From a virus, in IMG/VR virus record IMGVR_UViG_3300020469_000062, positions 1 through 53,203 of that record: a stretch of 53,203 nucleotides of DNA. One strand, written 5' to 3'. The notes beneath the pieces are model-generated. The model ran no database searches and was not told the origin of the DNA. It saw only the letters and a list, made by a program, of their open reading frames with translations. Both the position numbers and the translations under genes were made by a program. Of this stretch, positions 21,542-52,478 are shown one piece after another (position 1 is the stretch's first letter; the number at the start of each line of letters is the position of its first letter).

Positions 21542-21549
21542 TATTTATG
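21542..21549 (-). promoter_or_regulatory. Late promoter CATAAATA overlapping the giant gene stop
   Basis: CATAAATA on the minus strand contains the TAA stop (21547-21545) of the 6587-aa gene and lies 19 nt before the ATG of the 414-aa fibre-like gene. It would allow the downstream genes to be transcribed without the preceding 20-kb gene. Confidence 0.6.
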
Positions 21550-36500: not shown

Positions 36501-39500
36501 TCTATCTCAAATAGTAGTATATCACCATTCTCTAGTGTTAGAGCGTTTGTAGAGGCATTTGGTGCCCTCTCAACGTCAATATCAACATTCTCATAAGGAT
36601 CACGATATCTAACAACACCAGTAGGAATATTTTGCTGAATAGCAGTTGCACTTAAGTTCCAAGTGTCTACAACCGAGTTGAAATCAGGTCCTAAAACATA
36701 TGGGAATAATGCACCACCATCTTCAGTAGAATCAATAGTAACAAAGTAACAATATCTACCTGTTGGATAATCAGGTGTTTTACAGAATCTACCGTTATAT
36801 TGATCGAGTGCACCTAGACCAAACACATATTCATAGTCTTCTACAAAATTACCTGCAACTTCAGCAGTTAATAATGGTCCTGCTGTTCTAACAGGAGTGG
36901 GATTAGAATCTACATTATATACTAGATTAGTTTTAAGTCTGTATGAAGTATTTAATTTTGCTATTGATGAGGATTGATCTGTAGGATCTGAGTATCCATA
37001 AGGACCGTATATTGGGTTTCCATCAAATGCCCAACCAATAATAGGAGAGTGTTCGAGTCCATCTTCCTTTTCTTTTATTAAACCTGCTGTATTTTCAAAT
37101 AAGTTATCACCAAGAATATATCTAAGTGTTTGAGGATTGCTTAAGTGTGCATATTCACCACCATACTGATTATTATATCCTTCAAATACAGAACCTTTAG
37201 CACTATCAAATGTTGTTGATTTTTGTAAGTTATAAGTCCACTCAAATACGTTAGCATTAAATGAAGCACCTGCACCAACTGAGTTTAGACTTATTACAGT
37301 AGTTCCCTGTACATAACTAATACCTCTGTTAACAATAGTGATACCAGTCACTCTACCTGCATTTTCTCCATCAGTGTCTATAGTTGCTCTAGCAACAGCA
37401 CCAAAACCTGCACCTTGTATAGTGATCTCAGGAGCAGTCGTATATCCAGATCCAGCAGATATAATCGCAATAGATATGATTCTACCGTTATTGACTATAG
37501 CTTGTGCAACAGCACCACTACCAGAACTTAATGTTACAGTAGGAGTTGATGTATATGAAGTACCACCTGCTGATATGGCAACTGATTGAATAGGACCACG
37601 AACAGATGCTGTAGCAGCAGCACCGCTTCCACCGCCACCTACAATAGTGATTTGAGGTTGTGAAGTATATCCAGTACCACCTGAGTTGATTAATATTCTA
37701 GATACAACTCCTTTTGTAATGATAGCAGTTGCAGCAGCACCAGAACCGCCACCGCCAACGATTGAAACTAGAGGAGAAGAAGTAAATCCTGTACCACCAG
37801 TAGTAACAGTAATTTCACTAACAGAACCGTTAACAACAACCGCAGCAGTTGCACCAGTTCCTCCACCACCACTGATAGTTAATACTGGTGGAGATGCAGC
37901 ATCATATCCAGATCCTGCATTAGTAATACCAACACTAGTAACAGCACCAAATGTTTTCTTCCTAGTTGATTTGTATGACCATATTGATACTCCATTTACC
38001 CATGTACCTATAGGTCCTGGAGATATAGTATTTTTTGTTGATATAGTTGTAGAAACTATAGGGAAACGATTTAACTTTCGTTGGTTGCCTGGTAATAGTG
38101 CAGACCCTGGAAATGGACCAATTTTATAGTTTGGTATACCAGTTGAAGCTAGGTATGCATAGGTTGTATTAAAAAATGAGTTTTGTACGTTAGTTGTGTA
38201 TGGTCCAATAGCATTGAATACTGCAGTGCTATCAGATTTACCTTTGTTCAAGTCAACAGATACAAGTATATTACCCTGTGGTACCACAGTTGCGGGTTGG
38301 GGTAACTGATATTGGAATACTGTGCTTGTATCTCTAGATGTGACTAAGAATGAACCATTATAGATGATTGGGTTAGCACCATATACAGTAACTTGATCTC
38401 CAACCAACAAACCATGATTATTTGCACAAGTTACAGTAGCAAACTGATTATTAACACCACCGAAGGTTATACCAGTAACTTGAATAAGTTTCTTAACGTT
38501 ATACAACCATGTTGTAAGGTGAGGGTCAAGACTAGTACCACCTAACTTAGAAACTGTTAGTTTGTCCCCTGGTAGGTAGTAAGAACCTGTATCAACTAGT
38601 GTTGTTTGCTGTGCATCAACTATACCTACTATGTTCATCACTACTTCTTGTAGTGTTCCCTTATTAACGTATACTGTAAAGTTAGAAGAAACTTGTGTAG
38701 CAGAATCCCAATCTTCTACAACACCATTTGCTGAACGAGTACATTCAATAAACTGGTTAAGTGATTTTTCCTTATATTGTACAACTTCTGTTCTAGTACC
38801 AGATCCAATAACAAATTCACCGTTTCTTTCTGGCCAACCTACAGTAGAGTCAACCGTAATGATTGAGTCGGTTGTATTGAGAGGTTCTGCAAGTTTTGTC
38901 TTATAAGGTACGGTAAATGTCCCAGTAATAGTCTCTTCTGATAAAACAAGTTCAAATATCTCTACATCTGAGGTTTTAATCGAAATATAGTTCTCTACTA
39001 ATGCACTTGCTGCTAAAACGTTTGGATCAGCAATGTCCGCATCTTGTGTAAGTAATCCATCTCTTATATTAGTTGCATCTCCAGAAACTTTAGTTGCTCT
39101 GAGAATTGTATCAATAGACCAAGTTGCAGCAGATGGTTTGATGATCTGATCTTTTGGATATGTAACTGAAACACTCTCACCATAAAGAAGTTTGAAAAGA
39201 TATGCAATACTGAAGGATGTACCTTTAGAAGAGTAGAAATCTTTTACAGTTTTGATAGATGTTCTTACATCAATCTTAGAATAGTCAAGTTCGGGAACAT
39301 CAGGTAAGAATTGTTCAGTGTATTTGTCTAATAGTCTTTTTACAAACAATGCATCAAGACATTTTACACTAGCACCAACTATTGCGGGTGCTGCAGTAGT
39401 ATTACTTGTAAATACCGCATTACCATCTTCAGTATATGAAGTGATACCAGATGCTGCTCTAGCACACCCAGTAAATGCTGCTTTCTTGTATCCAGATCCA

Positions 39501-41308
39501 TTTTCAGTAACTGCAAAACCAGTAACTTCGTTTAGACCTATTTCAGCAGATGATTTAGCACTCGGAGGTGATTGAATGACAATTTCTGGAGGTGTAGCAG
39601 CAGAATAACCAGAACCAAAGGCAGTTATGTTAATATCTGTGATTTGACCATTGAAAATAGAAGCAACTGCAGTAGCACCAGTTCCACCGTTAGTTCTATT
39701 ATCTACAATGTATACTGAAGGTACATCATCAAATCCACTACCACCATTAAGTAAATCAACTCTTATAACACGCCCATCTCCATCAACAACTGTTTCTAGT
39801 ATCTGTGCACCTACAGGATCGACTATAGCGACTCTAGGTGAAGTTGTATATCCTTGTCCCGCATTTAATACAGATATGCTACCAACTTTACCTTCGCTAG
39901 TTAAGTTTGCTCTTAATGCTGCTTTGATTGGGTTAGAACCTGTTGGTTCATCAACATACACTGTTGGTGCGGTAGTATATCCAAATCCGTTTGCGGTAAC
40001 GGGTATAGAAGCGATCTGTTCATTAGAAAGTACAGGAGTTCCTAGTTTCGCACCACCTGGTTGAATAAAAGTGATTCTAGGTGTAAATGTATATCCAGAA
40101 CCAGAGTTAGTAATGTTAAGTCCAGTAACTGCACCGTCAGCAACTGTTGCGGTGATTGTTGCTTGAGAGGATCCTGCTTTAGTTGGTGTTTGTACTTGCA
40201 CAACAGGAGGATTAGTTGTACTATATCCCTTTCCTCCGTCTAGTAGAGTGATTGATTTTAAACCATTGACAAGTGCGGTAGCAGAAGCACCAGAACCTGC
40301 TGCGGAGTTAATACTAACTTGAGGTGGATACTCAAAACGATATCCAGATCCAATCGCACTAGATGATACACTTGTTAAAGTTCCAGTATCACTAATACGA
40401 GCAAATCCAACCGCACCACTACCAAATGAAGGTATTGGTGCTTCTATAGAGTGGATTGATAAGAAACGCCCATTTAGAGGTGCTGTTTTAAATATAAACT
40501 GATTCTTATCTATGAAGTAGTCTACTTTAGGTACTAGCAGTCTATTATCATAGATTACGTTTAAATATTCTTCGTTCTGCGGTTCATATGATACTCCGTT
40601 ACGAGTCATAGTAAATTGCTTCTTTCCGTCACCAAATGCGCCAGATAGATTATCTAATCCGTAAATTGTACTTTCTACAAAACCACTAAGGTAATAAATG
40701 TATGTTTCTCCCGCATCATCAGCAGGGAGTTTAGTTCTTGGCGCGGTAGTGAAGACAATATTGCTACCAGAAACAGTATAGTCCGTGTTTGGTATTAATA
40801 TCTGACCATATAGTGATACAATCAAATGCTGTGCACTAGGAGGTCCTATTGGACTATCTTGAGATGTTAGAGGAAATGATGTTGTATTTCCGTTAAACTG
40901 AGTTATTATTGTTGCAAGTGTTGTCCACTTAAGTTTTACCTGATCATATGAGATTCCTGGAGCAAGTGAGATGTTTGGTGCATTCTCAACATCTTCATAG
41001 AATATAACTTCATCGCCTATTAGAATAGATCCATTCTTTTCTAAGAACGGATCTACACTCTCTACTACAATTTTATCATCTGTTGCATTTATTGCTTCTA
41101 CAACAGTTGTTTGTCCATCAAGTATTCCGATATCCAATTTATCGATATCAAGATACTGAAGGAAGTTATTAAGTATATTTTGTCCTAAACCAGTTTTTTC
41201 TTGTGACTTATAATAGTATTCAAGAAATTTATTAAACAGGGGGTATTCTGACCCAATAAAATCGGGTGATTGTGAAACAATCGACTGAGAAACCTTATTA
41301 ATGTTCAT
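21545..41308 (-). CDS. Giant modular baseplate-associated adhesin/fibre, 6587 aa
   Basis: One uninterrupted frame of 19.8 kb. Approximate layout by residue: 1-60 helical anchor (SPDFIGSEYPLFNKFLEYYY, LNNFLQYLDIDKLD); 130-295 two units of the NGVxQ..xY.v.G..I.F..aP type; 300-640 GSGY repeats; 648-732 second half of the anchor (LLDKYTEQFLPDVPELDYSK, DFYSSKGT, LFKLLYG, YPKDQIIKPS); 1120-1346 GSGY repeats; 1413-1543 YHYH domain; 1823-2203 beta-propeller-like; 2203-2425 LamG/ConA-like; 3003-3226 GSGY repeats; 3556-3636 NGV unit; 4030-4356 second LamG-like domain carrying an insertion; about 4000-5060 five HTF/FTCxxDxN..YPR units; four helical units around 4480-5510; 5613-5840 jelly-roll-like binding module (NGWFRCYI, WGAKL); 6276-6436 two NGV units; 6490-6587 GSGY repeats. 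It lies between gp6 and gp8 where T4 has gp7. The likely role is a giant fibre anchored to the baseplate that binds host surface glycans. Confidence 0.8.
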   Translation of the reverse strand: MNINKVSQSIVSQSPDFIGSEYPLFNKFLEYYYKSQEKTGLGQNILNNFLQYLDIDKLDIGILDGQTTVVEAINATDDKIVVESVDPFLEKNGSILIGDEVIFYEDVENAPNISLAPGISYDQVKLKWTTLATIITQFNGNTTSFPLTSQDSPIGPPSAQHLIVSLYGQILIPNTDYTVSGSNIVFTTAPRTKLPADDAGETYIYYLSGFVESTIYGLDNLSGAFGDGKKQFTMTRNGVSYEPQNEEYLNVIYDNRLLVPKVDYFIDKNQFIFKTAPLNGRFLSIHSIEAPIPSFGSGAVGFARISDTGTLTSVSSSAIGSGYRFEYPPQVSINSAAGSGASATALVNGLKSITLLDGGKGYSTTNPPVVQVQTPTKAGSSQATITATVADGAVTGLNITNSGSGYTFTPRITFIQPGGAKLGTPVLSNEQIASIPVTANGFGYTTAPTVYVDEPTGSNPIKAALRANLTSEGKVGSISVLNAGQGYTTSPRVAIVDPVGAQILETVVDGDGRVIRVDLLNGGSGFDDVPSVYIVDNRTNGGTGATAVASIFNGQITDINITAFGSGYSAATPPEIVIQSPPSAKSSAEIGLNEVTGFAVTENGSGYKKAAFTGCARAASGITSYTEDGNAVFTSNTTAAPAIVGASVKCLDALFVKRLLDKYTEQFLPDVPELDYSKIDVRTSIKTVKDFYSSKGTSFSIAYLFKLLYGESVSVTYPKDQIIKPSAATWSIDTILRATKVSGDATNIRDGLLTQDADIADPNVLAASALVENYISIKTSDVEIFELVLSEETITGTFTVPYKTKLAEPLNTTDSIITVDSTVGWPERNGEFVIGSGTRTEVVQYKEKSLNQFIECTRSANGVVEDWDSATQVSSNFTVYVNKGTLQEVVMNIVGIVDAQQTTLVDTGSYYLPGDKLTVSKLGGTSLDPHLTTWLYNVKKLIQVTGITFGGVNNQFATVTCANNHGLLVGDQVTVYGANPIIYNGSFLVTSRDTSTVFQYQLPQPATVVPQGNILVSVDLNKGKSDSTAVFNAIGPYTTNVQNSFFNTTYAYLASTGIPNYKIGPFPGSALLPGNQRKLNRFPIVSTTISTKNTISPGPIGTWVNGVSIWSYKSTRKKTFGAVTSVGITNAGSGYDAASPPVLTISGGGGTGATAAVVVNGSVSEITVTTGGTGFTSSPLVSIVGGGGSGAAATAIITKGVVSRILINSGGTGYTSQPQITIVGGGGSGAAATASVRGPIQSVAISAGGTSYTSTPTVTLSSGSGAVAQAIVNNGRIISIAIISAGSGYTTAPEITIQGAGFGAVARATIDTDGENAGRVTGITIVNRGISYVQGTTVISLNSVGAGASFNANVFEWTYNLQKSTTFDSAKGSVFEGYNNQYGGEYAHLSNPQTLRYILGDNLFENTAGLIKEKEDGLEHSPIIGWAFDGNPIYGPYGYSDPTDQSSSIAKLNTSYRLKTNLVYNVDSNPTPVRTAGPLLTAEVAGNFVEDYEYVFGLGALDQYNGRFCKTPDYPTGRYCYFVTIDSTEDGGALFPYVLGPDFNSVVDTWNLSATAIQQNIPTGVVRYRDPYENVDIDVERAPNASTNALTLENGDILLFEIEDEDRSGVIEADETADPDQVFEESPLQLFDYFPTVKLDSKVDIEVETTTKFEDASVTGFTVENPGISYQVNDRLIFDNTDTDGSGVSARISRIVGETVEAYTFENISGNNFGVLTTVNPHNLQAGDSVFVDYTPVMANTNKTYSVRQFKGIEEIVINTTGSGYNSDIPPTIIIDGNGTGGQLEAVVTSVGSIETVNIVNSGFGYTSNPRVILSHPQVFKKADYYIAKFSNAQYVKVNDVYVNSDKEVYLCGKTKDSSGNAVAFLAKLSASGVKEWEKTLELATGQEESEFIRLFVDGHDIWVVGENRPNSSILSQYNPDIVLAKYVEASNGLTAALSFQKGYAGISGSTRADHITCIKKYSSTRFIIGGFTNTNSGAPYDAFIASIDTSGNFAIKRKLASSNKSEKITDIIVNGTDVYASLEIAATSSAADIDVAVAKISFGTTVITVDWVNQYANSLYSILNSSLDIDEFNEIYITGGLRLKADDATRDSWWVGKIDTTGALIWNYRYLAPGRDLTMAATSAIDIFGDLNVAFTRIDNTSTLTTIDTVKIGYDGKIKNHTTNQSTANKIEGLTVHSIDVDNSGDIHAVGQTQWNRNEFLFPFTAGSTADSTTAYTLTSTSTSNSITYADNVAKINGYQTGQTSWTQANLQITSAQLGTKLASDFTIEMMVYKDSTVTSVSPTQQTLIGIGDAEVATGGLWLYYDISGGKLELVITNSSTKLNSASGAAQSALSNMYADNTWQFIGLKKEGNVYTVYVNGIQVIQSTIAGTSLGSKDLYIGQYPGRSGTIGNFRANEQGQFFVDNLRLRNRAVTPTVPSDVSALPTAGAFGFAYSWTNTAWFTTNTNRYDLIDFEGFALKSDKNADAARIGTISTGTNTQIGFTRTAVTPVTGSTLTIQNTGYALSEAGFQSLDFDDATITMTEGTQTLTYTQDIWSSRTATVPSPGSQKLSVSAVVKDRYFFKVTPTIKIDNVQKLTINQAFNFSIGSKLRLNNSSGVFVNSGYVVRRDVDNNQIYLAVNNNTWTDDLNTGQLVTEQFSEQSTYGIVGPIPNDINIIEGYTFATITNTTPGTFDIDLNDFNLDGTTSTGSGNLDSFAKFKPFATADYSVRIDEVSGSSAYIVGSVVQLTSGDISFNTAYSTTQITNLTGVLKITLVANLDKILQVTAVANSDEVYVITNTSHYLSTGDMIYVDGNPSQTIGSTVYDEYDGAFAVNRVISPLEFVYKLPTVAQTSPATSASSVNIFVKSPVLKMYYGHQYIFDLSHSSLVGGNLSFAKDSLYKLEYSFNSIERVGTPGVTGAGQPNPSVTLKVDETIVTNISYYFDPSRTGSDSPVVAGSYLDVVDSPYKGVFEISSVAGATITRGADIIKYPLLNEPEGAADINQATYATSSLRAVGSINAVRIVNPGGFYTRLPIVTSIQSTRQIERVQINNPGTEYAVGTYSSVPIGGDGEGGFVEIIVADGTDANGVTIPGQINSVVVTSPGKNYTTATIDIEAISGILGSGLTGSGAEIVVVIPPFGSGASIFTKGDSVGKIKKLKNNNFGYDYPHDYTLRPEITFPINAQLTSTSILDSITVTDPGTGYSQAPAVVITGGGGSGAIAEASIKNGRLDTIIVKDPGAGYSSTPAVNLRSSFNYVVNLDLGLLQFAFPHGIANGSAVTLNVVDTGEGADFPLSAGATGRLNSSTTYYAISGTANSLETDQLKLAITAANAALGDALSYVNAGTGRQQVLTESFGGAATANVITSTFLEGELVYQGDSLATSTAQGYVSTNSGWQIGPRVLKIVDYTGTFSQGSRITGVISKSSGIMSDIKVATGVLEIGSITKTTGQFIDDVGKPSEIIQKIQDSYYYQDFSYAVKSAVSIGDWKEILIKNVHPASFKVFGELDLNDYGVIPNKETAFQLTKSVELARDAIVPNIQNFALVEPVYSEFNNTEVLFRQKRLTSSENILTSVVQRLDDISTQFDGQKISFPLTVDGNNVVANANQLMIVLNGVVQTPGTAFELQGDAIVFSEPPQPPASIKYVNVTINQIATKTVTFNNISGIFPTIGMALVGTSSGARLTVTKITGNDIDGFITQGTFTLGELATVGATGFAANIGTVTDVSNIGLFVFGENVSNLTSNTAKVEQINLQSGAETPLAQLRYTIGASTTSIEMVAYRTDNTAADAPVTAGTFVTGKNYQVESEIFLVNTIVQNNNSTTLTVTRAQNGTAAVSHQEYNPIYGTDITVTNTLTLSKTAGTYQSTPGLFDIVLNDYIIGAQSGVVAQITATSTYQDPTTNEFIGQVNISEGSSFFGLLFNRITSQTYPNIVLDNISQSQIGIVNFTDNLTAFDSSFPANEQVNNYVIPYDNLTGTFQENEYIRNYKIDYGNNNGDFLATEGARIRKLTITDRIGDGIFQTGQVIRSRDSKAEVVGYNQARNTIYLGKIGRSQRGGLDYNPPTWYGEAQIDTSTKKFGTGSLLLGRANHTHTFVSGVTNGIQASNGATSTHTAQTGTSYDPEAGTLVINIGTHSLTTSNKVTIADSAITFTCTADSNTTNHPYPRSTDPASGQALTISAVTSDTITVSVGVAQVTLDYLNVDSSSDFAWGTAAFTIELYVKAAAASISGVTTLLDFRTTANDVAGRLYTNGGQVRYNVNNSDLVTSGATVLATDTWTHIVVQKTSTTVKIFLDGTERGTGTDSQNYAAKPLRIGADYAGANAFFGHIDELRLSSESRYSTIPFTPQNGMFQGDANTKLLWHFDGADKQVFLEDWSGAPDFTIDEYVNNDAIRATARLIGGVHTFVSATTNAISVTGSSSFTPTAVDYDATTGLMEINIGSHSYTTSDTITIAANSLTFTCTKDNNATNHSYPRVTDPSYGATLAITAVTGDTITVNVGLASRGFDQKTHRYINAADLLILNYDYIANEAVYIMKERYPFFTIVGGEVNCEDDVRDILKAMVEDLRNGSNSHTWDAAALYVNRTTNPITLLHVSDDLKESLYTYDIVEKLARFVINNHPWSTLGDHGLTQKYDTTITESNYLTQSVTQFTPSTATYNPATGDMVVTSNGHGLTSDTNLTASNATYNAATGVLNITSNSHNLATGDKIQLADNSLTFTCSMDSNATNHTYPRAKDPAAQGWQEVTRVDANNFTLDVGKSPIVNYQPTGATYDPSTGVAVLTLPDNNLGIGTYVKVTANSLTFARGTGGNGTLPATDKYVNITQNGVTSTATGATYSTSDGVLVITQNAHGFVVGDKIRIADNSLSFTCTKDGNHETKTYPRSTDPFSGRWLRITAKTDNTFTVNVGPSSAADQYVHTFVSAAANGIIKRDNTITVNIGTDSNTSTHTFSSALSNTVITGGNYTHAFVSATTNGITVSGDSVFLADGAVSFTCSKDGNSKITAYPRKTDPASKQVLKISSHTNDTFTINVGASSADDQYTHTFSSAVTNGITKSEYTLTDCQDVQSTIANLFDIITDTLTYASQSPAVDHLATVTKSTPAYEFVGGTINAFSEVPLTVDYHNGTNDTIYTNQIDVDARGRFRDAANLIRANRKVIVDKAAYDMLTRYPALALDMPRNANGTSTDGTLRCKTDLGLILDGLAQDIEDGGNDGILTAVGFYIGNNSELRYIRLQVHQSAYAHERLAFYAKQAVTGDLDYTNTDGIIVGDWGITNDSGGCANVKTAIDTLITLLNDIIAPTAADFNTAADRIYFNREGIRAEITGLMGVEFNYLLNQVQYQAFQFPGGALGESAFQQTLEDILIGAISDLQTGGNDSIILEIEKFLTSALEYNYSTSGVEQLLIATVYGVEQLETIGLKAIDNLLYTQGEDNSGTAGAYNFVHHNIAAVRDSLTLSDAISVKNRWKELIEIAVNILSPARKVGRSASKNLLYNKNYYLQEIQTQTLAQFGAGSWTYDTFVTDVLEDIIHDLQTTNIRTSTTAYQITIQSVSSTAFQLGEVVRSNIGGYATILEYEEETNFLIVGAFTGTAWVAGNTLTGKTSGATATISSGGVGTGYTWYTKIGNTRTLANARTIISTVSGQTAGTNLWTNPEAYSVNWTPTTNVTITDNVSTLAPDDTQTAEDVTPNNGQNGQHEINRDYSLTAFETFDSGTTTFDNNTESFDTGAVGAGETQTFTFSAFVKESGSQGIRFQMQLDPGGAGEQNIFFDLNLTNGTTGTLFTPQGGITGDAFGAIPLGNGWFRCYITATFSFGFTTLRNKFIIKSSTGGSVWTGDASTGILVWGAKLTKNALDPYQAQSGKLFYADTGFNTKNYILDLLQTYMLASLDGTLTSPAPNSGFYSFYDSTAAADYSKPSVAAVVRYLIKIIKDQLVDDSTYIQITTNRNIELPTKVYTTGRTIPVSIKGGANNADYVYGLLSNTYAEIENITLNQGYVVQVYSRFRIDGNITDGPYTMNETVAKQGASSITGTVYGFFEDANFKYLDVKITAGPWAISDNVVGATNSTTAQISAIETRVHIIDLKGDFVADIPFKGYTSGAIAQPTSFLKVQASVTDNTGGKLTVDTETLLGSFETTAVVYPESSRQYIVVSKYAGLDIGVGDRIASRGYKRFGINIISNLNNFSVGNRLYKVVSGVQDSATYGIITDVDIANNYVYMIEYQGTFTNGDQIGDYGLAASFPVGYASISTIVTTAGAGAALVQDVRVDGINKRLYLSDVTGSFGVRDAIKGPDSYGAVIFSQVDLKARVKRSFKGFDGTTTTFPLTITNGTTYLPDPAGHLLIFVNGILQPPGATNAYTAFSNQIQFTEPPDLGASFTGFYIGKLRQLDDISFEFDSLRQSFNLKRNDVFYSLTLTDGVQSSVIRPENNIICSLNGVIQEPGVGFEIVGSRIIFSEVPRFGSTFVAFSYVGSEADVDAAEVVPPIEPGDFIDIQGETADREVAVIESSNSLITFDYLGSVFGQNATATAVLTSGFIDTVQVTNGGSGYTTRPTVRIDSISGFDGNIRALVGVAGIELSATGSGYSNPDIAVETSVPDDWVAPDISTYGEELVDPETP
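28793..29118 (-). other. HTF/FTC repeat module inserted inside the second LamG-like domain
   Basis: In the giant protein, a LamG-type first strand (KKFGTGSLLL) is followed by about 108 residues of an HTFVS...FTCTADSN..HPYPRSTDP module before the expected continuation (DYLNVDSSSDFAWGTAAFTI...) appears. Four more copies of the inserted module follow downstream near 27.9, 27.2, 26.7 and 26.35 kb. Confidence 0.6.
37270..37950 (-). repeat. Run of GSGY beta repeats in the giant gene
   Basis: About seven consecutive units of roughly 30 residues (90 bp) fit the pattern (I/V)xxGGxGYTxxPxVxIxGGGGSGAxAxAxVxxG. Other runs lie near 39.4-40.4 kb, 31.6-32.3 kb and 21.55-21.8 kb in the same gene. Related units occur in gp8, the 1394-aa protein, the 832-aa protein and the end of the 2122-aa fibre. 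Confidence 0.8.
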
Positions 41309-46968: not shown

Positions 46969-47179
46969 TTTCGAGTTTATCCAATCGTTTATAGATTAGA
47001 TCGAAGTTTTCCTTTATATTTAAGTAATCTGAATGGTTAGTTGGTTTATAAAGTAACTTATCATGCACATGTATTGGCATTTCAGAAACATATTTCTCAA
47101 CTTCTTCTAATCTCTTACCAATAACTACCATACACTCATTAATAGTGTTAAGGGCAAGTGCTAGTTCCTGTTCATTCAT
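46958..47179 (-). CDS. Small helical protein of unknown function (73 aa)
   Basis: The start chosen gives MNEQELALALNTINECMVVI, then GKRLEEVEKYVSEMP. This ATG overlaps the stop of the AbrB-like gene by 8 nt, the usual spacing here. A frame-consistent ATG 33 nt further upstream (47212, giving 84 aa) is possible but would overlap the preceding gene by 41 nt. The protein is mostly charged helix (1-30 and 52-72) with a central IHVHDKLLYKPTNHSDYL segment. It ends 11 nt inside the next gene. No family recognised; the position at the head of the virion operon suggests a small structural or assembly protein. Confidence 0.6.
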   Translation of the reverse strand: MNEQELALALNTINECMVVIGKRLEEVEKYVSEMPIHVHDKLLYKPTNHSDYLNIKENFDLIYKRLDKLENGM

Positions 47180-47336
47180 TCTCTGATTGTTTAAAAATAA
47201 TCTTACCGTCAATTATATCATATTCTAACTCAGTTTCACGATACCATCCAAGGTCTTCACATATCTCGTAAGGAATAGTAAGTACTAGATCACCAAAATC
47301 ATCTTCGTCGAGTTTTGTGGTGAATCTTTTTGACAT
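47172..47336 (-). CDS. AbrB/MazE-like small protein (54 aa)
   Basis: MSKRFTTKLDEDDFGDLVLT, then IPYEICEDLGWYRETELEYD and IIDGKIIFKQ. The pattern GDLxLxIPxEIxExLGW...xxLEyxxxDGxIxxK is that of the swapped-hairpin AbrB/MazE/SpoVT DNA-binding fold, and matches a short protein that I have seen in other T4-like cyanophages. Such proteins are antitoxins or transition-state regulators in bacteria. No toxin gene of MazF/VapC type is visible next to it, so a regulatory DNA-binding role, or a co-opted non-DNA role, is more likely than a toxin-antitoxin pair. It starts 3 nt after the preceding stop and overlaps the next gene by 8 nt. Confidence 0.62.
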   Translation of the reverse strand: MSKRFTTKLDEDDFGDLVLTIPYEICEDLGWYRETELEYDIIDGKIIFKQSENE

Positions 47337-47790: not shown

Positions 47791-48027
47791 CTAGGCAAGT
47801 GCTTCGATTTCCTTCTGTGAAATTGTCTCGAACTCTGGGAAATCAGAATGACCATCTTTTAACCATTTGTTTATGTGGCGTGAAGTGGTAACGCTGAAGA
47901 ACTGCTCAGTTTTTACGAACCCTCTGCCAAAGATATAAGCAGCAACTGGGGTACGGTAAGAAAAAAATACTCTTGCTGTGTCTGTCTCTACTTCTGTACC
48001 GTTTGCAAATACTGGTGTTAAGTTCAT
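47791..48027 (-). CDS. Conserved small phage protein (78 aa), TTSRHINKWL type
   Basis: VFFSYRTPVAAYIFGRGFVK, then TEQFFSVTTSRHINKWLKDG. The SYxTPVAAY...TxxFxSxTTSRHINKWL pattern is one I associate with a small protein of unknown function found in many marine and enteric phages. It probably folds as a small beta-alpha domain. No catalytic residues are evident. It has its own promoter module (48059-48117) and an AAGGA sequence 11 nt before the ATG. It is the last gene before the terminator at 47734-47761. Confidence 0.72.
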   Translation of the reverse strand: MNLTPVFANGTEVETDTARVFFSYRTPVAAYIFGRGFVKTEQFFSVTTSRHINKWLKDGHSDFPEFETISQKEIEALA

Positions 48028-48058: not shown

Positions 48059-48117
48059 ATTATAGTACTTCTTTCCCCTCTGTGGTCACTGTGTGTGCCA
48101 CTTCTTCAACTGGCACA
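48059..48117 (-). promoter_or_regulatory. Promoter/operator module E
   Basis: Minus-strand order: TGTGCCA-N10-TGGCACA dyad (48117-48094), 29 nt containing a degenerate CCACAGAGGGG dyad, then TATAAT (48064-48059), 31 nt before the ATG of the 78-aa gene. The whole module lies inside the 3' coding end of the 72-aa gene, whose stop TAA is part of the -10 box. Confidence 0.75.
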
Positions 48118-48278
48118 TAGTAGCATAATCCCTCCTCTAAGAAGTAAATACACCTCTGCATTATTTCAGTACTGAAGAAGTGTTGCTCTGTGTCTAACAA
48201 ATACTGGCATAAGTCTATTTGCTGTTTATTACTTAAGTGGGGATACTTGTCATACAGTTCTTTATACTTAGGGGTCAT
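48060..48278 (-). CDS. Hypothetical protein (72 aa) whose 3' end carries a promoter
   Basis: MTPKYKELYDKYPHLSNKQQ, then IDLCQYLLDTEQHFFSTEIM. Residues 1-45 look helical. No family recognised. The C-terminal codons (YVPVEEVAHTVTTEGKEVL) are the promoter module E read in frame, and the stop TAA lies inside that promoter's TATAAT. A separate sigma70-like promoter with an extended -10 (48314-48343) lies upstream, so this gene may be expressed early by host polymerase. Confidence 0.65.
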   Translation of the reverse strand: MTPKYKELYDKYPHLSNKQQIDLCQYLLDTEQHFFSTEIMQRCIYFLEEGLCYYVPVEEVAHTVTTEGKEVL

Positions 48279-48313
48279 AAGTTACAGTTAACCTTTTCAT
48301 TCCTTACAGTCAT

Positions 48314-48343
48314 ATTGTACCATAATTCTTTATACATTGTCAA
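48314..48343 (-). promoter_or_regulatory. Sigma70 promoter with extended -10
   Basis: TTGACA (48343-48338), an 18-bp spacer ending TGG, and TACAAT (48319-48314) on the minus strand. It lies 36 nt before the ATG of the 72-aa gene, in the 169-bp non-coding gap 48279-48447, which shows nothing else that I can name. Confidence 0.65.
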
Positions 48344-48447
48344 GAATGTTCCGATATTCTGATATACTTGACACTCGGTAAGTTGCGTGCTAAGAGTACA
48401 TTAACCTGAGAGATTAATCCATCTATATAACACTTAATAAGATTTAT

Positions 48448-48588
48448 TTACATATTTTCGTTATTATCCGCTAGATGCCATTTTCCATCTTTTCTAACAT
48501 AATCCCAAGTAAAATAGGTTAGTTCTTTAACAACTATCCATACCATAGTGAAGTCCTTATTTATTACATAGTGATCGAACTTCCGCAT
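48448..48588 (-). CDS. Hypothetical protein (46 aa)
   Basis: MRKFDHYVINKDFTMVWIVV, then KELTYFTWDYVRKDGKWHLA and DNNENM. GGAG lies about 11 nt before the ATG, and the start is 6 nt after the preceding stop, so it is the last member of the operon that begins at 49771. A small aromatic-rich protein; no family recognised. An internal ATG at residue 15 would give a shorter product without a better ribosome site. Confidence 0.6.
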   Translation of the reverse strand: MRKFDHYVINKDFTMVWIVVKELTYFTWDYVRKDGKWHLADNNENM

Positions 48589-48594
48589 GCTAAA

Positions 48595-48861
48595 TTAACT
48601 CCAATCATCCAAAGTTAAAGAGTTCTTATTACTCTTATTTGCAAATCTGTTTGGTTGTTCTAATTTAGTCATTGCTTCATACTCATTTTTGTATACTAAT
48701 ACCTTAACTTGAATATAATTTAGTCTGCTTCCTTTTGCCTGTTCGTTATCTCTTTGTATCTCTCTAACACATAGAGTAATATAATCATTACATATGAAAT
48801 CTATGTAACCTATATCATTTTTTGATTGATAATAGTCTCCCCTATTAAATGTTACTTTCAT
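48595..48861 (-). CDS. Conserved hypothetical protein (88 aa), GDYYQSKN type
   Basis: MKVTFNRGDYYQSKNDIGYI, then DFICNDYITLCVREIQR. The start GDYYQSKN.IGYxDFIxxxYITLCV resembles a small conserved protein of marine T4-like phages that I cannot name further. It is mostly beta in the first 65 residues, then a basic and Asn-rich tail. It overlaps the preceding gene by 4 nt (ATGA) and is followed closely by the 46-aa gene. Role unknown. Confidence 0.65.
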   Translation of the reverse strand: MKVTFNRGDYYQSKNDIGYIDFICNDYITLCVREIQRDNEQAKGSRLNYIQVKVLVYKNEYEAMTKLEQPNRFANKSNKNSLTLDDWS

Positions 48862-49070
48862 ATCTTAATATAGGGAAACTCGTTGTTATCAAAGAAAATA
48901 AGTTTGTTATGTGCTAAACACTTAGCATCTAAATGTTCATCATAGATAGCAACATTTTTCTTTAACTGATTAGGGTTTAATTGTTGTAACTCTTCCAGTA
49001 AATCTTGATAGGTCATTGTTGCCATAATGTTAGATGTTTGTTCTGACCATTGTATTAAGTTCCAACTCAT
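48858..49070 (-). CDS. Conserved hypothetical protein (70 aa), MTYQDLL type
   Basis: The conserved-looking part begins at residue 19 (MTYQDLLEELQQLNPNQLKK, then NVAIYDEH), a pattern (MTYxxLLxELQxLxxxQLxxxVxVYD) found in small cyanophage proteins. The ATG at 49070 overlaps the preceding stop as ATGA and is kept for that reason; the start could instead be the ATG at residue 19 (49016). No enzymatic motif. Part of the operon starting at 49771. Confidence 0.6.
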   Translation of the reverse strand: MSWNLIQWSEQTSNIMATMTYQDLLEELQQLNPNQLKKNVAIYDEHLDAKCLAHNKLIFFDNNEFPYIKI

Positions 49071-49288
49071 TGCAAGTGAAGTAACTGGTTTATATAGTTA
49101 TCATGTATAGTCTTTAATCTGTGTATAATGTCAATAAGTGCTTTTTGCTCGTCTGTCATTGCTCCATATTGTTCCATTTCTGCTTCTAGATCCTCTGGAA
49201 TATACTCGACTGCTTGATACAGTTCTGTTAACTCATCATAGTTGTTAAAACTCAAATGCGGTATAGGTGCGGATTGATTTAGGTTCAT
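49067..49288 (-). CDS. Hypothetical acidic protein (73 aa)
   Basis: MNLNQSAPIPHLSFNNYDEL, then TELYQAVEYIPEDLEAEMEQ. Largely helical with an acidic centre and a C-terminal IHRLKTIHDNYINQLLHLQ helix that could mediate oligomerisation. No family recognised. Third-last gene of the operon starting at 49771, coupled to the next gene by ATGA. The 36-nt gap before it has no clear SD. Confidence 0.6.
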   Translation of the reverse strand: MNLNQSAPIPHLSFNNYDELTELYQAVEYIPEDLEAEMEQYGAMTDEQKALIDIIHRLKTIHDNYINQLLHLQ

Positions 49289-49324
49289 TTGCGTGTAGTG
49301 CGGATAAGTGTTAGAATAATGGGG

Positions 49325-49771
49325 TTATCTCCTGTATAGATAACCACCTGCCCAATCTACATTTTTTGACTGGAATAAGAAATTTCTGTGTGTAACGTCT
49401 GCAAGATTGAAGCGAACTCCTTTTGCTGGTTTGTTATAACCTGCAGGTTTGAAAACCTCGCCTGTCTCCTTATTAATGAAAGCATGCACACTAGCGTCTC
49501 TATACTCGCCATTTCTGAAATCCTGTTGAACGACCTTGAAATACTTGCGACCCTCGTAGCATGCAAATTTCATTAACTTTTCAGTTCCATTCTCAATATT
49601 GCGAAGTTGCTCCTGTGCATAGTCTGATAAGTCTGTTCTGTTTTGAGACTTAAAACTTGTGAAGTTTGTTTCATGCATTCTGATACGATACTCTTTATAG
49701 TTCCTTTCGAGAGAATCACATAGTTGACTTACATAACCGTAGATGTCTGTTTTTACCATTGTGTGTGTCAT
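49325..49771 (-). CDS. Conserved cyanophage-type hypothetical protein (148 aa)
   Basis: The C-terminal half (VHAFINKETGEVFKPAGYNK, then PAKGVRFNLADV and WAGGYLYRR) fits a pattern (HAFVdk.TGevyKPAsw..PAKGVRyNL...DWaGGYLY) that I associate with small proteins of marine myoviruses. The N-terminal 75 residues look helical and charged. It is the first gene after promoter module D, 25 nt from the -10 box. An alternative ATG at residue 5 exists. Function unknown; early or middle expression is inferred from the promoter. Confidence 0.68.
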   Translation of the reverse strand: MTHTMVKTDIYGYVSQLCDSLERNYKEYRIRMHETNFTSFKSQNRTDLSDYAQEQLRNIENGTEKLMKFACYEGRKYFKVVQQDFRNGEYRDASVHAFINKETGEVFKPAGYNKPAKGVRFNLADVTHRNFLFQSKNVDWAGGYLYRR

Positions 49772-49786
49772 AATAATCTTTGTTGC

Positions 49787-49969
49787 TTATACCTCTATTA
49801 TAGTGGCGTCCGACCCACAAATGGGGGGCGAGTGTGACAGTTTAACAAGTGGCACAATATCGGTTGACATTATCATAGGTTTCTGTTCTATATTAGAGAA
49901 GAACATATACCCATGATCTTTGAAACTTGTTTCTTTTCTCAAGTAAGAGATCTCTTTAAAAGTTTTCAT
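49787..49969 (-). CDS. Hypothetical protein (60 aa) reading through a promoter module
   Basis: MKTFKEISYLRKETSFKDHG, then YMFFSNIEQKPMIMSTDI looks like ordinary protein. The last 23 codons (VPLVKLSHSPPICGSDATII) are promoter module D read in frame, ending at TAA just past its -10 box. The frame through the dyad is the same as in the 72-aa gene at module E. Its start overlaps the preceding 50-aa gene by 14 nt. It may be a real gene extended through the regulatory DNA, or one whose original stop was lost. Confidence 0.5.
   Translation of the reverse strand: MKTFKEISYLRKETSFKDHGYMFFSNIEQKPMIMSTDIVPLVKLSHSPPICGSDATIIEV
49797..49856 (-). promoter_or_regulatory. Promoter/operator module D
   Basis: Minus strand: TGTGCCA-N10-TGTCACA dyad (49856-49833), 30 nt including CCCCATTTGTGGG (49826-49814), then TATAAT (49802-49797), 25 nt before the ATG of the 148-aa gene. 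The leader (GTATAAGCAACAAAG...) matches those of modules A and F. Confidence 0.75.
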
Positions 49970-50108
49970 AGTGTTGTTTAAGTTGTTTAGTCTTTTGCCT
50001 GATTAAATAACCCTGCTCGATTTGGGAAAAATAGATGTAAGAAGTATCTTGATATTTTTTATAATCTCCCCATCTTTTAGACTTCCATAACTTTTGATTA
50101 TATTCCAT
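49956..50108 (-). CDS. Hypothetical protein (50 aa)
   Basis: MEYNQKLWKSKRWGDYKKYQ, then DTSYIYFSQIEQGYLIRQKT. The ATG is in TAATG overlap with the stop of the preceding 71-aa gene, and the stop lies 14 nt inside the next gene. Very basic and aromatic; possibly a nucleic-acid-binding peptide, but there is no recognised family. Chosen because it fills an otherwise empty 140-bp gap with the coupling typical of this region. Confidence 0.58.
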   Translation of the reverse strand: MEYNQKLWKSKRWGDYKKYQDTSYIYFSQIEQGYLIRQKTKQLKQHYENF

Positions 50109-50323
50109 TATCCTAGAATCTCCAACTCTTTAAAGTTATGACAATAAACTCTTTTACCTCTATCATTAATAAGGATAGTAAAGTTTTCAGTTGGTATAAA
50201 TCCCTTCCTATCCTGATCTCCTTTAATGTAGTTTATCAAGACTTGATACTCTTTATTTTTAAAGAGTACATTATCCCCGACTCCAATAGAGTCAGGTTTT
50301 TTGTATCGTTGTATAGTCTTCAT
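50108..50323 (-). CDS. Hypothetical small beta protein (71 aa)
   Basis: MKTIQRYKKPDSIGVGDNVL, then FKNKEYQVLINYIKGDQDRK. The start at 50323 overlaps the preceding stop as ATGA. A frame-consistent ATG at 50368 would overlap that gene by 49 nt and is less likely. The GVGDNVLFKNKEYQVL...NFTILINDRGKRVYC pattern suggests a small SH3-like or KOW-like beta barrel, but this is only an impression. Member of the operon from module B. Confidence 0.6.
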   Translation of the reverse strand: MKTIQRYKKPDSIGVGDNVLFKNKEYQVLINYIKGDQDRKGFIPTENFTILINDRGKRVYCHNFKELEILG

Positions 50324-50655
50324 AGATATGTGACCTCGCCATTTTCGACTGCTTCCATATATTCGCACATATCAGAATGTGCCTTCTCTTGATTTTTATT
50401 ATTTTCCTTCCATGTAAGATCTCTGTATATGTTCATTAGTTCCCCTATGTTGAGACCTTCCATGTCTGTCCAGTTAGCAACATAATCCAGTTGACTCTCA
50501 TCATATCCACCTGACTTGAGACTAGGTGCTGATATAAACTCAAATGCGAGATCTATGAAAAAATGTCTTCCATAGAATTCTGACTCAATAGTCTGTAATG
50601 GCATAAACTTCCCATGCGGGTCGTTTACATAGTTTCCAAAAATCCAAGTTCTCAT
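50320..50655 (-). CDS. Hypothetical protein (111 aa)
   Basis: MRTWIFGNYVNDPHGKFMPL, then QTIESEFYGRHFFIDLAFEF. A mixed alpha/beta protein with conserved-looking WIFGNY, FYGRHFFIDL and DESQLDYVANWTDMEGLNI segments. I do not recognise a family. It begins 4 nt after the preceding stop and is coupled by ATGA to the following gene. Larger than its neighbours, so it may have a defined enzymatic or binding role, but no catalytic signature is visible. Confidence 0.65.
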   Translation of the reverse strand: MRTWIFGNYVNDPHGKFMPLQTIESEFYGRHFFIDLAFEFISAPSLKSGGYDESQLDYVANWTDMEGLNIGELMNIYRDLTWKENNKNQEKAHSDMCEYMEAVENGEVTYL

Positions 50656-50659
50656 TTGA

Positions 50660-50869
50660 TTAAACTCCTTTTACGTCATTAGTTAAATAAGTTTGCTTTG
50701 CGTTGCAAACATTATCAACTAGATTATCAAAGGTTTGAGTATCCCAACCTTTTTGATCTGGAATATCCAAATCGTATGCTGACATAACTAGGTCATAAAG
50801 AAAATCGTACTGAGAATCAGTTACTTGAATGTTTAGACCTTTTTTGTTGCTTCCGTAAATACCTGACAT
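50660..50869 (-). CDS. Hypothetical protein (69 aa), first gene of module B operon
   Basis: MSGIYGSNKKGLNIQVTDSQ, then YDFLYDLVMSAYDLDIPDQK. A helical acidic protein of unknown family. It is the first gene after promoter module B, 36 nt from its -10 box, and is followed after 4 nt by the 111-aa gene. The longer leader lacks an SD, as do the other module leaders. Confidence 0.62.
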   Translation of the reverse strand: MSGIYGSNKKGLNIQVTDSQYDFLYDLVMSAYDLDIPDQKGWDTQTFDNLVDNVCNAKQTYLTNDVKGV

Positions 50870-50905
50870 AATGAATAAAAGTTGTTGAATGTTTGTTATA
50901 CTATT

Positions 50906-50964
50906 ATTATAGTGGATTGTATCCCCAGATGGGGATACTGTGTGCCAGTTTGTTTATTGGCACA
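50906..50964 (-). promoter_or_regulatory. Promoter/operator module B
   Basis: Minus strand: TGTGCCA-N10-TGGCACA dyad (50964-50941), a perfect GTATCCCCA-TC-TGGGGATAC dyad whose core is 50934-50923, an 11-nt spacer, then TATAAT (50911-50906). The upstream 54-aa gene ends inside the first dyad (codons TGC CAA TAA). Confidence 0.8.
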
Positions 50965-51118
50965 TCATCTCAAATTTTTGGTTAGCATGCTTTGATGCTA
51001 TTGCTTCGAGGTGTTCCATAGGTAACATAATACCTAGTTGGATGTTTTTTGCTGTAAGATCGTCTAGAATCTCCTCGTATAAGTTTTCTAGGATTTCTGT
51101 GTTTGCTGAATGACTCAT
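50954..51118 (-). CDS. Hypothetical protein (54 aa) ending in an operator
   Basis: MSHSANTEILENLYEEILDD, then LTAKNIQLGIMLPMEHLEAI. A small helical acidic protein, no family recognised. It is the only gene between modules C and B, so each module serves as few as one gene. Its last codons and TAA stop are part of the TGTGCCA dyad of module B. The ATG is 32 nt from the -10 box of module C. Confidence 0.6.
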   Translation of the reverse strand: MSHSANTEILENLYEEILDDLTAKNIQLGIMLPMEHLEAIASKHANQKFEMMCQ

Positions 51119-51150
51119 AATAAAGTTGTTTGAACTGTGTTTATACTAAT

Positions 51151-51208
51151 ATTATAAAGGATTATGACCACAAGTGTGGCATAAGTGGACACTTTATAAA
51201 GTGGCACA
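51151..51208 (-). promoter_or_regulatory. Promoter/operator module C
   Basis: Minus strand: TGTGCCA-N10-TGTCCAC dyad (51208-51185; the right arm is degenerate but the centre CTTTATAAAG is symmetric), 28 nt including CCACACTTGTGG (51179-51168) flanked by TTATG and CATAA, then TATAAT (51156-51151), 32 nt before the ATG of the 54-aa gene. Confidence 0.72.
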
Positions 51209-51219
51209 TTTTTCATTGA

Positions 51220-51399
51220 CTAGTCCTCCCTCGGTAGTCCATACTCATTATAAATGAATGGAAATTTTTGTGCGATTGCTATATGTGCCTGATATATGTC
51301 AGTCGTAAATTTCTCTTCGTATTCCTCGTGATACTCTCGCCATTTTTGCTCTGTATCGTTAAATGATGGAATAGTCCAGTTAAATGGTTTAGTTGACAT
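51220..51399 (-). CDS. Hypothetical protein (59 aa)
   Basis: MSTKPFNWTIPSFNDTEQKW, then REYHEEYEEKFTTDIYQAHI. A strong SD (AGAGGAGG) lies upstream of the ATG, which is 3 nt after the preceding stop. An acidic, aromatic, probably helical protein; no family recognised. Its stop is 11 nt before the dyad of module C. A longer open frame in another register over the same bases is a shadow. Confidence 0.62.
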   Translation of the reverse strand: MSTKPFNWTIPSFNDTEQKWREYHEEYEEKFTTDIYQAHIAIAQKFPFIYNEYGLPRED

Positions 51400-51402
51400 T
51401 GC

Positions 51403-51645
51403 TTAAACCTCCTCTCTGATGTAACCGTTTTCTGACTTGATAAACTCATCAAGTTTAACAATATCGTCAGAAGTTAAATCATCAAAATCAACTCCGCCTA
51501 ACTTGTAGATTCCCCACTCTTCGATCTCGATAACATACTCTGCCCAGTCAGCACAACAACATGCCATATTCTGTAAGTTGTCATCAAATAGGATTCTCTG
51601 TTTGATTCTGTTTGTTGGTTCTGTGTAAGTTGCTGTTGAGTTCAT
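51403..51645 (-). CDS. Hypothetical protein (80 aa), Cys-Cys-Cys motif
   Basis: MNSTATYTEPTNRIKQRILF, then DDNLQNMACCCADWAEYVIE. Contains three consecutive cysteines (about residues 29-31) followed by an acidic C-terminal half (GGVDFDDLTSDDIVKLDEFI). No recognised family. First gene after promoter module A, 25 nt from the -10 box, with the conserved AACAAACATTATT leader. Cotranscribed with the 59-aa gene. Confidence 0.62.
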   Translation of the reverse strand: MNSTATYTEPTNRIKQRILFDDNLQNMACCCADWAEYVIEIEEWGIYKLGGVDFDDLTSDDIVKLDEFIKSENGYIREEV

Positions 51646-51670
51646 AATAATGTTTGTTGCTTATACTATT

Positions 51671-51729
51671 ATTATAGTGGGTTGTATCCCCAGATGGGGT
51701 AACTATGTGCCACTTTAATAACTGGCACA
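51671..51729 (-). promoter_or_regulatory. Promoter/operator module A
   Basis: Minus strand: TGTGCCA-N10-TGGCACA dyad (51729-51706), 6 nt, CCCCATCTGGGG (51699-51688), 11 nt, TATAAT (51676-51671), then the GTATAAGCAACAAACATTAT leader to the ATG at 51645. The dyad starts 4 nt after the stop of the 60-aa gene. Confidence 0.8.
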
Positions 51730-51733
51730 ATGC

Positions 51734-51916
51734 CTATTGATTTTCATATTCAAATGGTGTATAAGAATCTTTGAGTGCTTTTGAAACATTCGGTACTTTA
51801 AACGATACTTCCCACATTTTAGTTTTTGGGTTGTAGTCCATACCGCCAGTTGTATAATCCCCATAGGGGCAAGTGTTTAACCACTCATTGAATATTGTAA
51901 AAGTTGATCTTTTCAT
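51734..51916 (-). CDS. Hypothetical protein (60 aa)
   Basis: MKRSTFTIFNEWLNTCPYGD, then YTTGGMDYNPKTKMWEVSFK. A basic small protein with a probable beta-hairpin (TGGMDYNPKTKMWEVSFKVP). No family recognised. It is coupled by ATGA to the preceding gene and is the last gene of the module F operon; its TAG stop lies 4 nt before the dyad of module A. Confidence 0.6.
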   Translation of the reverse strand: MKRSTFTIFNEWLNTCPYGDYTTGGMDYNPKTKMWEVSFKVPNVSKALKDSYTPFEYENQ

Positions 51917-52116
51917 AGGAATGACGTTAGAGCGTGTGGTCTGTTTTTTTCATACTCTACATTTTTGAGAGTATAGGGTTGAATGTAGTTTTGTACATCA
52001 TCCCATAGTTCATGATCTTTTGATGTCCAACATCCGAGACCATTGTCTATCTTAAACTGGATATCGTCATCCAGTTTTTCATAAACGTCTATGTGAGTAA
52101 CTAATAGCATTACCAT
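51913..52116 (-). CDS. Hypothetical protein (65-67 aa)
   Basis: MVMLLVTHIDVYEKLDDDIQ, then FKIDNGLGCWTSKDHELWDD. Two starts are possible: 52116, or the second Met at 52110, which makes a TAATG overlap with the preceding stop and may be the true one (65 aa). No family recognised. Middle gene of the module F operon, ending in ATGA overlap with the 60-aa gene. Confidence 0.58.
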   Translation of the reverse strand: MVMLLVTHIDVYEKLDDDIQFKIDNGLGCWTSKDHELWDDVQNYIQPYTLKNVEYEKNRPHALTSFL

Positions 52117-52394
52117 GTACCGTCTTTGTGATCATAGTTTAGTTTGTCTAGTAGAATGTCTCTTACTCTCTCTCTGTCAAGTGAATCACCATCACCCCAT
52201 GTACAAAACTCGAAATCATCGTTGTTGCACTGGTCGAGGTAGATAACTGTTGCTGTTAGAATATCAGTCTTTGTTAATGGTTGACCTTGATAAACTAAAG
52301 GGTATAAAGGGTCATTCTGACCATAGAATGAATCAACATAATCAACGAAATCATCGATTTGTCTTTTTGCTGTTACTAGGTCTGTTGGTCTCAT
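52110..52394 (-). CDS. Hypothetical protein (94 aa), first gene of module F operon
   Basis: MRPTDLVTAKRQIDDFVDYV, then DSFYGQNDPLYPLVYQGQPL. A helical N-terminus, then LTKTDILTATVIYLDQCNND and an acidic GDGDSLDRERVRDILLDKL helix. I do not recognise a family. It lies 25 nt from the -10 box of module F with the AACAAACATTATT leader, and is followed by two overlapping small genes. Confidence 0.63.
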   Translation of the reverse strand: MRPTDLVTAKRQIDDFVDYVDSFYGQNDPLYPLVYQGQPLTKTDILTATVIYLDQCNNDDFEFCTWGDGDSLDRERVRDILLDKLNYDHKDGTW

Positions 52395-52419
52395 AATAAT
52401 GTTTGTTGTCGTTATCCTT

Positions 52420-52478
52420 ATTATAAGGGATTTTATACCCGATGCGTGGAAGTGTGTGACACATATTTAACTGTCACA
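52420..52478 (-). promoter_or_regulatory. Promoter/operator module F
   Basis: Minus strand: TGTGACA-N10-TGTCACA dyad (52478-52455), 29 nt with only a degenerate CCACGCATCGGG dyad, then TATAAT (52425-52420). The A-for-C change in the left arm is matched by a T-for-G change in the right arm, so symmetry is kept. The upstream 55-aa gene stops inside the dyad. Confidence 0.75.

What the first reader, a model, noticed from the sequence alone, without database searches (positions are those of the whole stretch)
48059..52478. Six copies of an unusual two-dyad promoter module drive the small-gene region
Six minus-strand promoters (TATAAT boxes at 48059, 49797, 50906, 51151, 51671 and 52420) share one plan: a 24-nt dyad TGTGNCA-N10-TGNCACA, then 28-30 nt holding a second dyad of the CCCCATCTGGGG type, 11 nt, TATAAT, and a leader rich in AACAAACA without an SD. 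If the hexamer is -12 to -7, the second dyad covers about -35 to -24 (centre near -30) and the first about -65 to -42. No TTGACA-like box is present. A box centred at -30 replacing the -35 element is how T4 middle promoters (MotA box) work, but the sequence is unrelated and I recall no MotA in cyanophages. This suggests a separate activator or repressor system. The compensating changes in module F argue for selected symmetry.
Basis: partly seen in the sequence, partly recalled or inferred. Interest (0 to 1): 0.78.

Follow-up and report, generated by a model that had tools for sequence, protein, structure and literature searches.

The report
Phage promoters copying host Yfr2 operator
Viruses of marine cyanobacteria put a copy of a host control sequence, the one in front of the host's Yfr2 small-RNA gene, upstream of batteries of their own small genes, so a regulator already present in the cell probably switches these genes on; this offers a concrete, testable answer to how these viruses start transcription.

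Summary
The six promoters are real: a 24-bp dyad, 28-30 nt, TATAAT, leader, ATG (five exact modules; zero in 100 shuffles). The module recurs in many T4-like cyanophages (P-RSM1, P-SSM2, S-TIM4 and others; the viral scan hit its 120-stretch limit), with TATAAT at 28-31 nt in 35 of 39 nearby cases. It is absent from T4 and a pelagiphage.

The second dyad is not part of the promoter code. Its sequence differs at each promoter, and such hairpins are enriched only where a same-strand gene ends at the module, so it is most likely that gene's 3'-end hairpin.

The first dyad is a host element. The same sequence, at the same distance from the RNA start, lies upstream of the sRNA Yfr2 (Rfam Cyano-1) in many cyanobacteria. 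Picocyanobacterial yfr2 promoters carry the same half-site TG[AC]CAGTT, over 50-fold enriched. Published work says that the cyanobacterial GntR regulator PMM1637 (PlmA) binds yfr2 promoters. No GntR gene was found in 14 phage records.

Best reading: these phages exploit host PlmA, probably as an activator of early genes. Not MotA-like, not phage-encoded. Direct binding, direction and timing remain untested.

The parts
48094..48117 (-). operator dyad, module 1 (TGTGCCAGTTGAAGAAGTGGCACA)
   Evidence: exact match; 0.01 expected in the window
48059..48064 (-). -10 TATAAT, module 1; gap to dyad 29 nt
47791..48027 (-). 78-aa ORF served by module 1 (phrog_5643, unknown function)
49833..49856 (-). operator dyad, module 2
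   Evidence: exact match
49797..49802 (-). -10 TATAAT, module 2; gap 30 nt
49325..49771 (-). 148-aa ORF served by module 2 (phrog_818, unknown function)
50941..50964 (-). operator dyad, module 3; overlaps the 3' end of ORF 50954-51118
   Evidence: exact match
50917..50938 (-). spacer hairpin of module 3 (about GTATCCCC-ATCT-GGGGATAC), read as 3'-end hairpin of the upstream gene
   Evidence: MFE -14.3 kcal/mol, z -7.0; class test
50906..50911 (-). -10 TATAAT, module 3; gap 29 nt
50660..50869 (-). 69-aa ORF served by module 3
51185..51208 (-). operator dyad, module 4, two mismatches in the arm nearer the promoter
   Evidence: read directly
51151..51156 (-). -10 TATAAT, module 4; gap 28 nt
50954..51118 (-). 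54-aa ORF served by module 4 (phrog_9309, unknown function)
51706..51729 (-). operator dyad, module 5
   Evidence: exact match
51671..51676 (-). -10 TATAAT, module 5; gap 29 nt; spacer hairpin CCCC-ATCT-GGGG
51403..51645 (-). 80-aa ORF served by module 5 (phrog_9580, unknown function)
52455..52478 (-). operator dyad, module 6
   Evidence: exact match
52420..52425 (-). -10 TATAAT, module 6; gap 29 nt
52110..52394 (-). 94-aa ORF served by module 6 (phrog_7799, unknown function)

Best explanation
The module is a sigma70-type promoter with a weak or absent -35 box and an operator centred near -53.5 that the phage shares with its cyanobacterial hosts: the control element of the conserved sRNA gene yfr2 (Cyano-1), built from half-sites TGTG(A/C)CA(G/C)TT. 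The regulator is most likely the single cyanobacterial GntR-family protein PlmA/PMM1637. Because it is in the cell before infection, it can act with host RNA polymerase on phage DNA at once. The strict dyad-to--10 spacing and poor -35 suggest activation of early genes. The spacer is free to vary and often holds the 3'-end hairpin of the preceding gene. Shown here: the promoter family, its spacing, the same element at host yfr2, and no GntR gene in the phage records searched. From the literature: PMM1637 binds yfr2 promoters carrying the CGRE1 motif. Inferred: that this dyad is a CGRE-type site, that PlmA binds the phage DNA, that it activates, and that the genes are early.
For: Spacing: TATAAT at 28-31 nt after the dyad in 35 of 39 cases in a set chosen without TATAAT. 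Recurrence in cyanophage isolates, not in T4 or HTVC008M. Same dyad 62-66 nt before Cyano-1/yfr2 in ten of 20 host loci tested, usually with a -10-like hexamer at gap 30; seen also, often degenerate, in loci found through the RNA alone. Half-site TG[AC]CAGTT 4.14/kb in yfr2 promoters against 0.06-0.08/kb in flanks. PMM1637 binds and mediates induction of yfr2 (PMC6778093); PlmA is universal in and restricted to cyanobacteria (PMC7344720). GntR domain in 0 of 14 phage records, 1 per picocyanobacterial genome in two tested. Precedent for cyanophages using a host regulator: PhoB (PMC10976474).
Against: No binding or expression data. The CGRE1 sequence itself could not be read (paper not held). 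Picocyanobacterial yfr2 promoters mostly lack the exact phage arrangement of half-sites, so host PlmA must accept both. Several cyanomyoviruses have few sites or none (S-CAM8 0), so it cannot be the only early promoter type. Upstream operators can also repress.
Confidence: 0.7

Rival explanations
1. The host regulator binds these sites but represses or times the promoters, or the many sites act mainly as a sponge that takes PlmA off yfr2 and other host targets.
For: GntR proteins are often repressors (general knowledge); 5-11 sites per genome in many phages.
Against: Sites lie upstream of the core promoter at a strict distance to a full -10, with a poor -35, as for activators; Yfr2 induction is described as mediated by PMM1637. 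A sponge needs neither promoters nor spacing.
Confidence: 0.18
2. A phage-encoded regulator unrelated to GntR recognises the dyad, and the host element is a coincidence or a second binder.
For: Phages carry small DNA-binding candidates such as the AbrB/MazE-like protein.
Against: The AbrB-like protein is missing from P-SSM2 and P-HM2, which have modules; the gp230-like protein occurs also in HTVC008M, which has none. Sequence, spacing and RNA start all agree with host yfr2.
Confidence: 0.09
3. One reading: two operators per promoter, with a MotA-like box centred at -30 replacing the -35 element.
For: Spacer dyads are real and spacer-specific (mean z -0.83; 23% below -2 against 3-7% elsewhere).
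Against: No common sequence. Enriched with a co-directional upstream gene (z -1.28, n=95) and not without one (z -0.10, n=48), p=8e-5. Six have the hairpin-plus-T-run form of terminators.
Confidence: 0.03

Closest known systems
Cyanobacterial yfr2 (Cyano-1, RF01701) promoter bound by GntR regulator PMM1637/PlmA (CGRE1 element; PMC6778093, PMC7344720)
   Same: Same dyad or half-sites, same distance to the RNA start, same place of the -10
   Different: Phage copies drive protein genes, are multiplied 3-11 per genome, have a full TATAAT, and use the inward-facing dyad, whereas most picocyanobacterial yfr2 promoters use other half-site arrangements
Host PhoB-controlled cyanophage promoters (P-SSM2 pstS; S-PM2d genes, PMC10976474)
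   Same: A cyanophage exploits a host transcription factor through its operator
   Different: Different regulator and site; Pho boxes are loose and serve nutrient-response genes, while this module is strict and serves arrays of small genes
T4 middle promoters (MotA box/AsiA)
   Same: Good -10, no -35 consensus, upstream activator element
   Different: MotA box is centred at -30; here the operator is at -65..-42, and cyanomyoviruses lack motA/asiA (PMC2984593)
NtcA-box promoters reported in cyanophages (PMC3037559)
   Same: Proposed use of a host nitrogen regulator
   Different: Different site (GTA-N8-TAC, general knowledge) and a CRP-family factor

Membership tests
PlmA/GntR-controlled (yfr2-type, CGRE) promoters | Half-sites TGTG(A/C)CA(G/C)TT upstream of a sigma70 -10 at the yfr2 distance | tested here: met
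PlmA/GntR-controlled (yfr2-type, CGRE) promoters | Matches the published CGRE1 sequence | not testable with these tools
   DNA Res 2018 25:489 not held; only position and half-site compared
PlmA/GntR-controlled (yfr2-type, CGRE) promoters | Binding by PlmA | not testable with these tools
   Needs EMSA or footprint
T4 middle (MotA) promoters | MotA box centred at -30, conserved in sequence | tested here: not met
   Region -41..-19 at most 0.33 bit per position over 103 modules
T4 middle (MotA) promoters | motA and asiA in the phage | not tested
   Reported missing from cyanomyoviruses (PMC2984593)
Phage-encoded GntR system | GntR domain in the phage | tested here: not met
   0 of 14 phage records; positive in host controls. 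The window's own genome is only a fragment
Intrinsic terminator (second dyad) | Hairpin at the end of an upstream same-strand gene | tested here: met
   p=8e-5 across modules
Intrinsic terminator (second dyad) | T-run after the stem | tested here: not met
   Only 6 of 41 hairpins, none in the window; so a 3'-end hairpin, not a proven terminator

The most novel reading that the evidence does not exclude
T4-like cyanophages, which lack MotA/AsiA, run a large early regulon from the host regulator PlmA through multiplied, near-perfect copies of the yfr2 operator. This would tie phage gene expression to the PII-PipX-PlmA nitrogen and redox network and compete with yfr2 for PlmA.
Probability: 0.5. 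Interest if true: 0.85.

Novelty: new variant of a known kind. Interest (0 to 1): 0.74.

Why it matters
A 2010 review calls the mechanism of early and middle transcription in cyanomyoviruses 'still unclear' (PMC2984593), and a 2020 review calls the PlmA regulon 'yet unknown' (PMC7344720). This finding links the two: it gives a strict promoter motif that predicts phage regulons, names a host protein, and can be tested with one gel-shift. It also suggests why arrays of unknown small phage genes are expressed together, and that the host's nitrogen and light state may gate infection.

Tried and rejected
AbrB/MazE-like 54-aa protein (window 47172-47336, phrog_661) as binder: missing from P-SSM2 and P-HM2, which have modules. 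gp230-like 'transcriptional regulator': no Pfam domain, and present in HTVC008M, which has no modules. 'Phd-like antitoxin' and 'plasmid stability' proteins: no Pfam support; the latter looks like a membrane-anchored peptide. The gap-40 peak as a helical-phase signal: mostly a divergent consensus promoter of one locus family, chance second TATAATs or unrelated sequence. Dyads shared by divergent promoters: many 'pairs' with one mismatch look like chance or coding sequence, so not claimed. Hits in Nonlabens and TMED113 genomes as a bacterial regulon: they look like cyanophage contigs. Ordinary CRP site: half-site spacing does not fit (inference). Timing: published P-HM2 clusters are in supplements that could not be read, and the Syn9 transcriptome paper was not held.

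Full report
WHAT IS THERE. The window is a 53-kb fragment of a T4-like cyanophage (baseplate genes match PHROG wedge families; nearest isolate P-RSM1, 55% identity on one wedge protein). On the minus strand, six TATAAT boxes precede small ORFs of unknown function. Each has a 24-nt dyad 28-30 nt upstream. Five dyads are exact, one has two mismatches. Exact dyads number 5 against 0.01 expected, and full modules 5 against 0 in 100 shuffles. In L226 and L230, contigs that carry a 100%-identical wedge protein, the array runs on past the window's end: about ten modules in 10 kb.

IT IS A PHAGE-WIDE PROMOTER FAMILY. A scan for dyad + 20-50 nt + TATAAT in IMG/VR hit its 120-stretch limit; the gap peaks sharply at 29 nt. 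A set chosen without TATAAT (wedge-protein relatives plus isolate segments) gives 76 distinct dyad orientations; TATAAT falls at 28-31 nt in 35 and anywhere else in 0-79 nt in 4. Whole-record dyad counts with up to 1 mismatch: P-SSM2 11, the record of S-TIM4 length 9, P-RSM1 8, S-PM2 7, P-HM2 7, S-SSM5 6, Syn9 5, P-SSM4 3, S-RSM4 3 (weak), S-CAM8 0, S-TIM5 0, Ma-LMM01 0, Syn5 0, P-SSP7 1 (chance-like), T4 0, HTVC008M 0. The reversed-pattern control is near zero (2 in P-HM2). Some copies, notably in S-PM2 and Syn9, lack a perfect TATAAT. Dyads also lie upstream of the gp150-like peptidase gene and of the 'porphyrin biosynthesis' (CobS-like) gene in P-RSM1. At the orthologous promoter in relatives of the window phage, dyad and TATAAT are kept while the spacer diverges.

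ANATOMY. In 103 non-redundant gap-29 modules the dyad is TGTG(C/A)CA(G/C)TT-N4-AA(G/C)TG(G/T)CACA at -65..-42 (outer bases fixed by the search). The -41..-19 region has at most 0.33 bit per position, with a weak mixture of TTGA and CCCA near -34..-31. Information returns at -18..-13 (ATGCCC), in the -10, and in an ATAACAAACAAA-like start of the leader. Arms vary almost independently at positions 5/20, and positions 8/17 favour G..G or C..C, so the site is a pair of half-sites rather than a strictly symmetric dyad.

THE SECOND DYAD. Spacers do hold hairpins more often than flanks or random stretches (23% with z below -2, against 3-7%), but of different sequence each time. They are enriched where a same-strand ORF ends at the module (n=95, mean z -1.28, 32% below -2) and not otherwise (n=48, mean z -0.10, 8%; p=8e-5). 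They are best read as 3'-end hairpins of the previous gene placed inside the next promoter. Only 6 of 41 have a T-run, so termination itself is not shown.

WHO BINDS. The scan of bacterial genomes gave about chance numbers. In cyanobacteria, however, a stricter dyad occurs, about once per genome, in 38 of 291 genomes. Rfam shows why: in ten of 20 such loci tested the dyad sits just upstream of Cyano-1, the sRNA Yfr2, 62-66 nt before its start. A -10-like hexamer usually follows at gap 30 (TATTAT, TATCAT, TAGATT, TATCCT and others), matching the phage geometry. Loci found by the RNA family alone show the element at the same place, often degenerate. In picocyanobacteria, the phages' hosts, the exact dyad is rare (8 of 251 genomes), but yfr2 promoters carry the same half-site in other arrangements; over 54 yfr2 loci its density is 4.14/kb in promoters against 0.06-0.08/kb in flanks, with at least one half-site in 13. 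The literature states that the GntR regulator PMM1637, common to all cyanobacteria, binds yfr2 promoters with the CGRE1 motif, and that Yfr2 induction in nitrogen starvation and high light is mediated by it (PMC6778093). PlmA is the name used elsewhere, with links to PII-PipX and thioredoxin (PMC7344720). GntR domains: none in 14 phage records, one in each of two picocyanobacterial genomes.

MECHANISM. Shown by computation: the promoter family, its spacing, the same element in host yfr2 promoters, and no GntR gene in the phages. Inferred: PlmA binds the phage dyad and helps host RNA polymerase at promoters with a poor -35, soon after infection. A fixed upstream operator fits activation better than repression, but direction is not proved. 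Exploitation of a host factor by cyanophages has precedent in PhoB (PMC10976474), so the kind is known; the regulator, the strictness and the scale are new as far as the accessible papers show. The 2018 CGRE1 paper could not be read and may already mention phages.

VERDICT.

Noticed in passing
L162, L223 (NZ_RMVE01000006.1, 188 kb); L172, L197, L221 (NHFO01000061/63): Contigs filed under Nonlabens xiamenensis and a Flavobacteriales MAG carry arrays of this cyanophage module with matching leaders and gene starts, so they are probably cyanophage contigs mixed into bacterial assemblies.
   Followed up: partly
all modules, +1..+12: The start of the leader (ATAACAAACAAA-like) is conserved across phages although there is no Shine-Dalgarno sequence; unexplained, perhaps a translation or stability element.
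   Followed up: no
-18..-13 of modules: An ATGCCC-like stretch just upstream of the -10 (C at -13 in 60%) is shared by many modules.
   Followed up: no
L064, L065, L081, L034: A divergent promoter (TTGACA-like box and TATAAT about 40 nt from the dyad) shares one dyad with a module in a family of related loci.
   Followed up: partly
window 47172-47336 (-): 54-aa AbrB/MazE-like protein (phrog_661), next to the baseplate genes, found in several but not all cyanophages.
   Followed up: partly
window 21545-41308 (-): A single 6587-codon ORF among the baseplate and virion genes; P-RSM1 has a large 'gp7-like' virion gene in the matching place.
   Followed up: no
L315-L321: A second conserved host dyad (TGTGCCACTTGCAAAACTGGTACA-like) beside a WD40-repeat gene in several cyanobacteria, with no Cyano-1 nearby in the two tested; perhaps another target of the same regulator.
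   Followed up: partly
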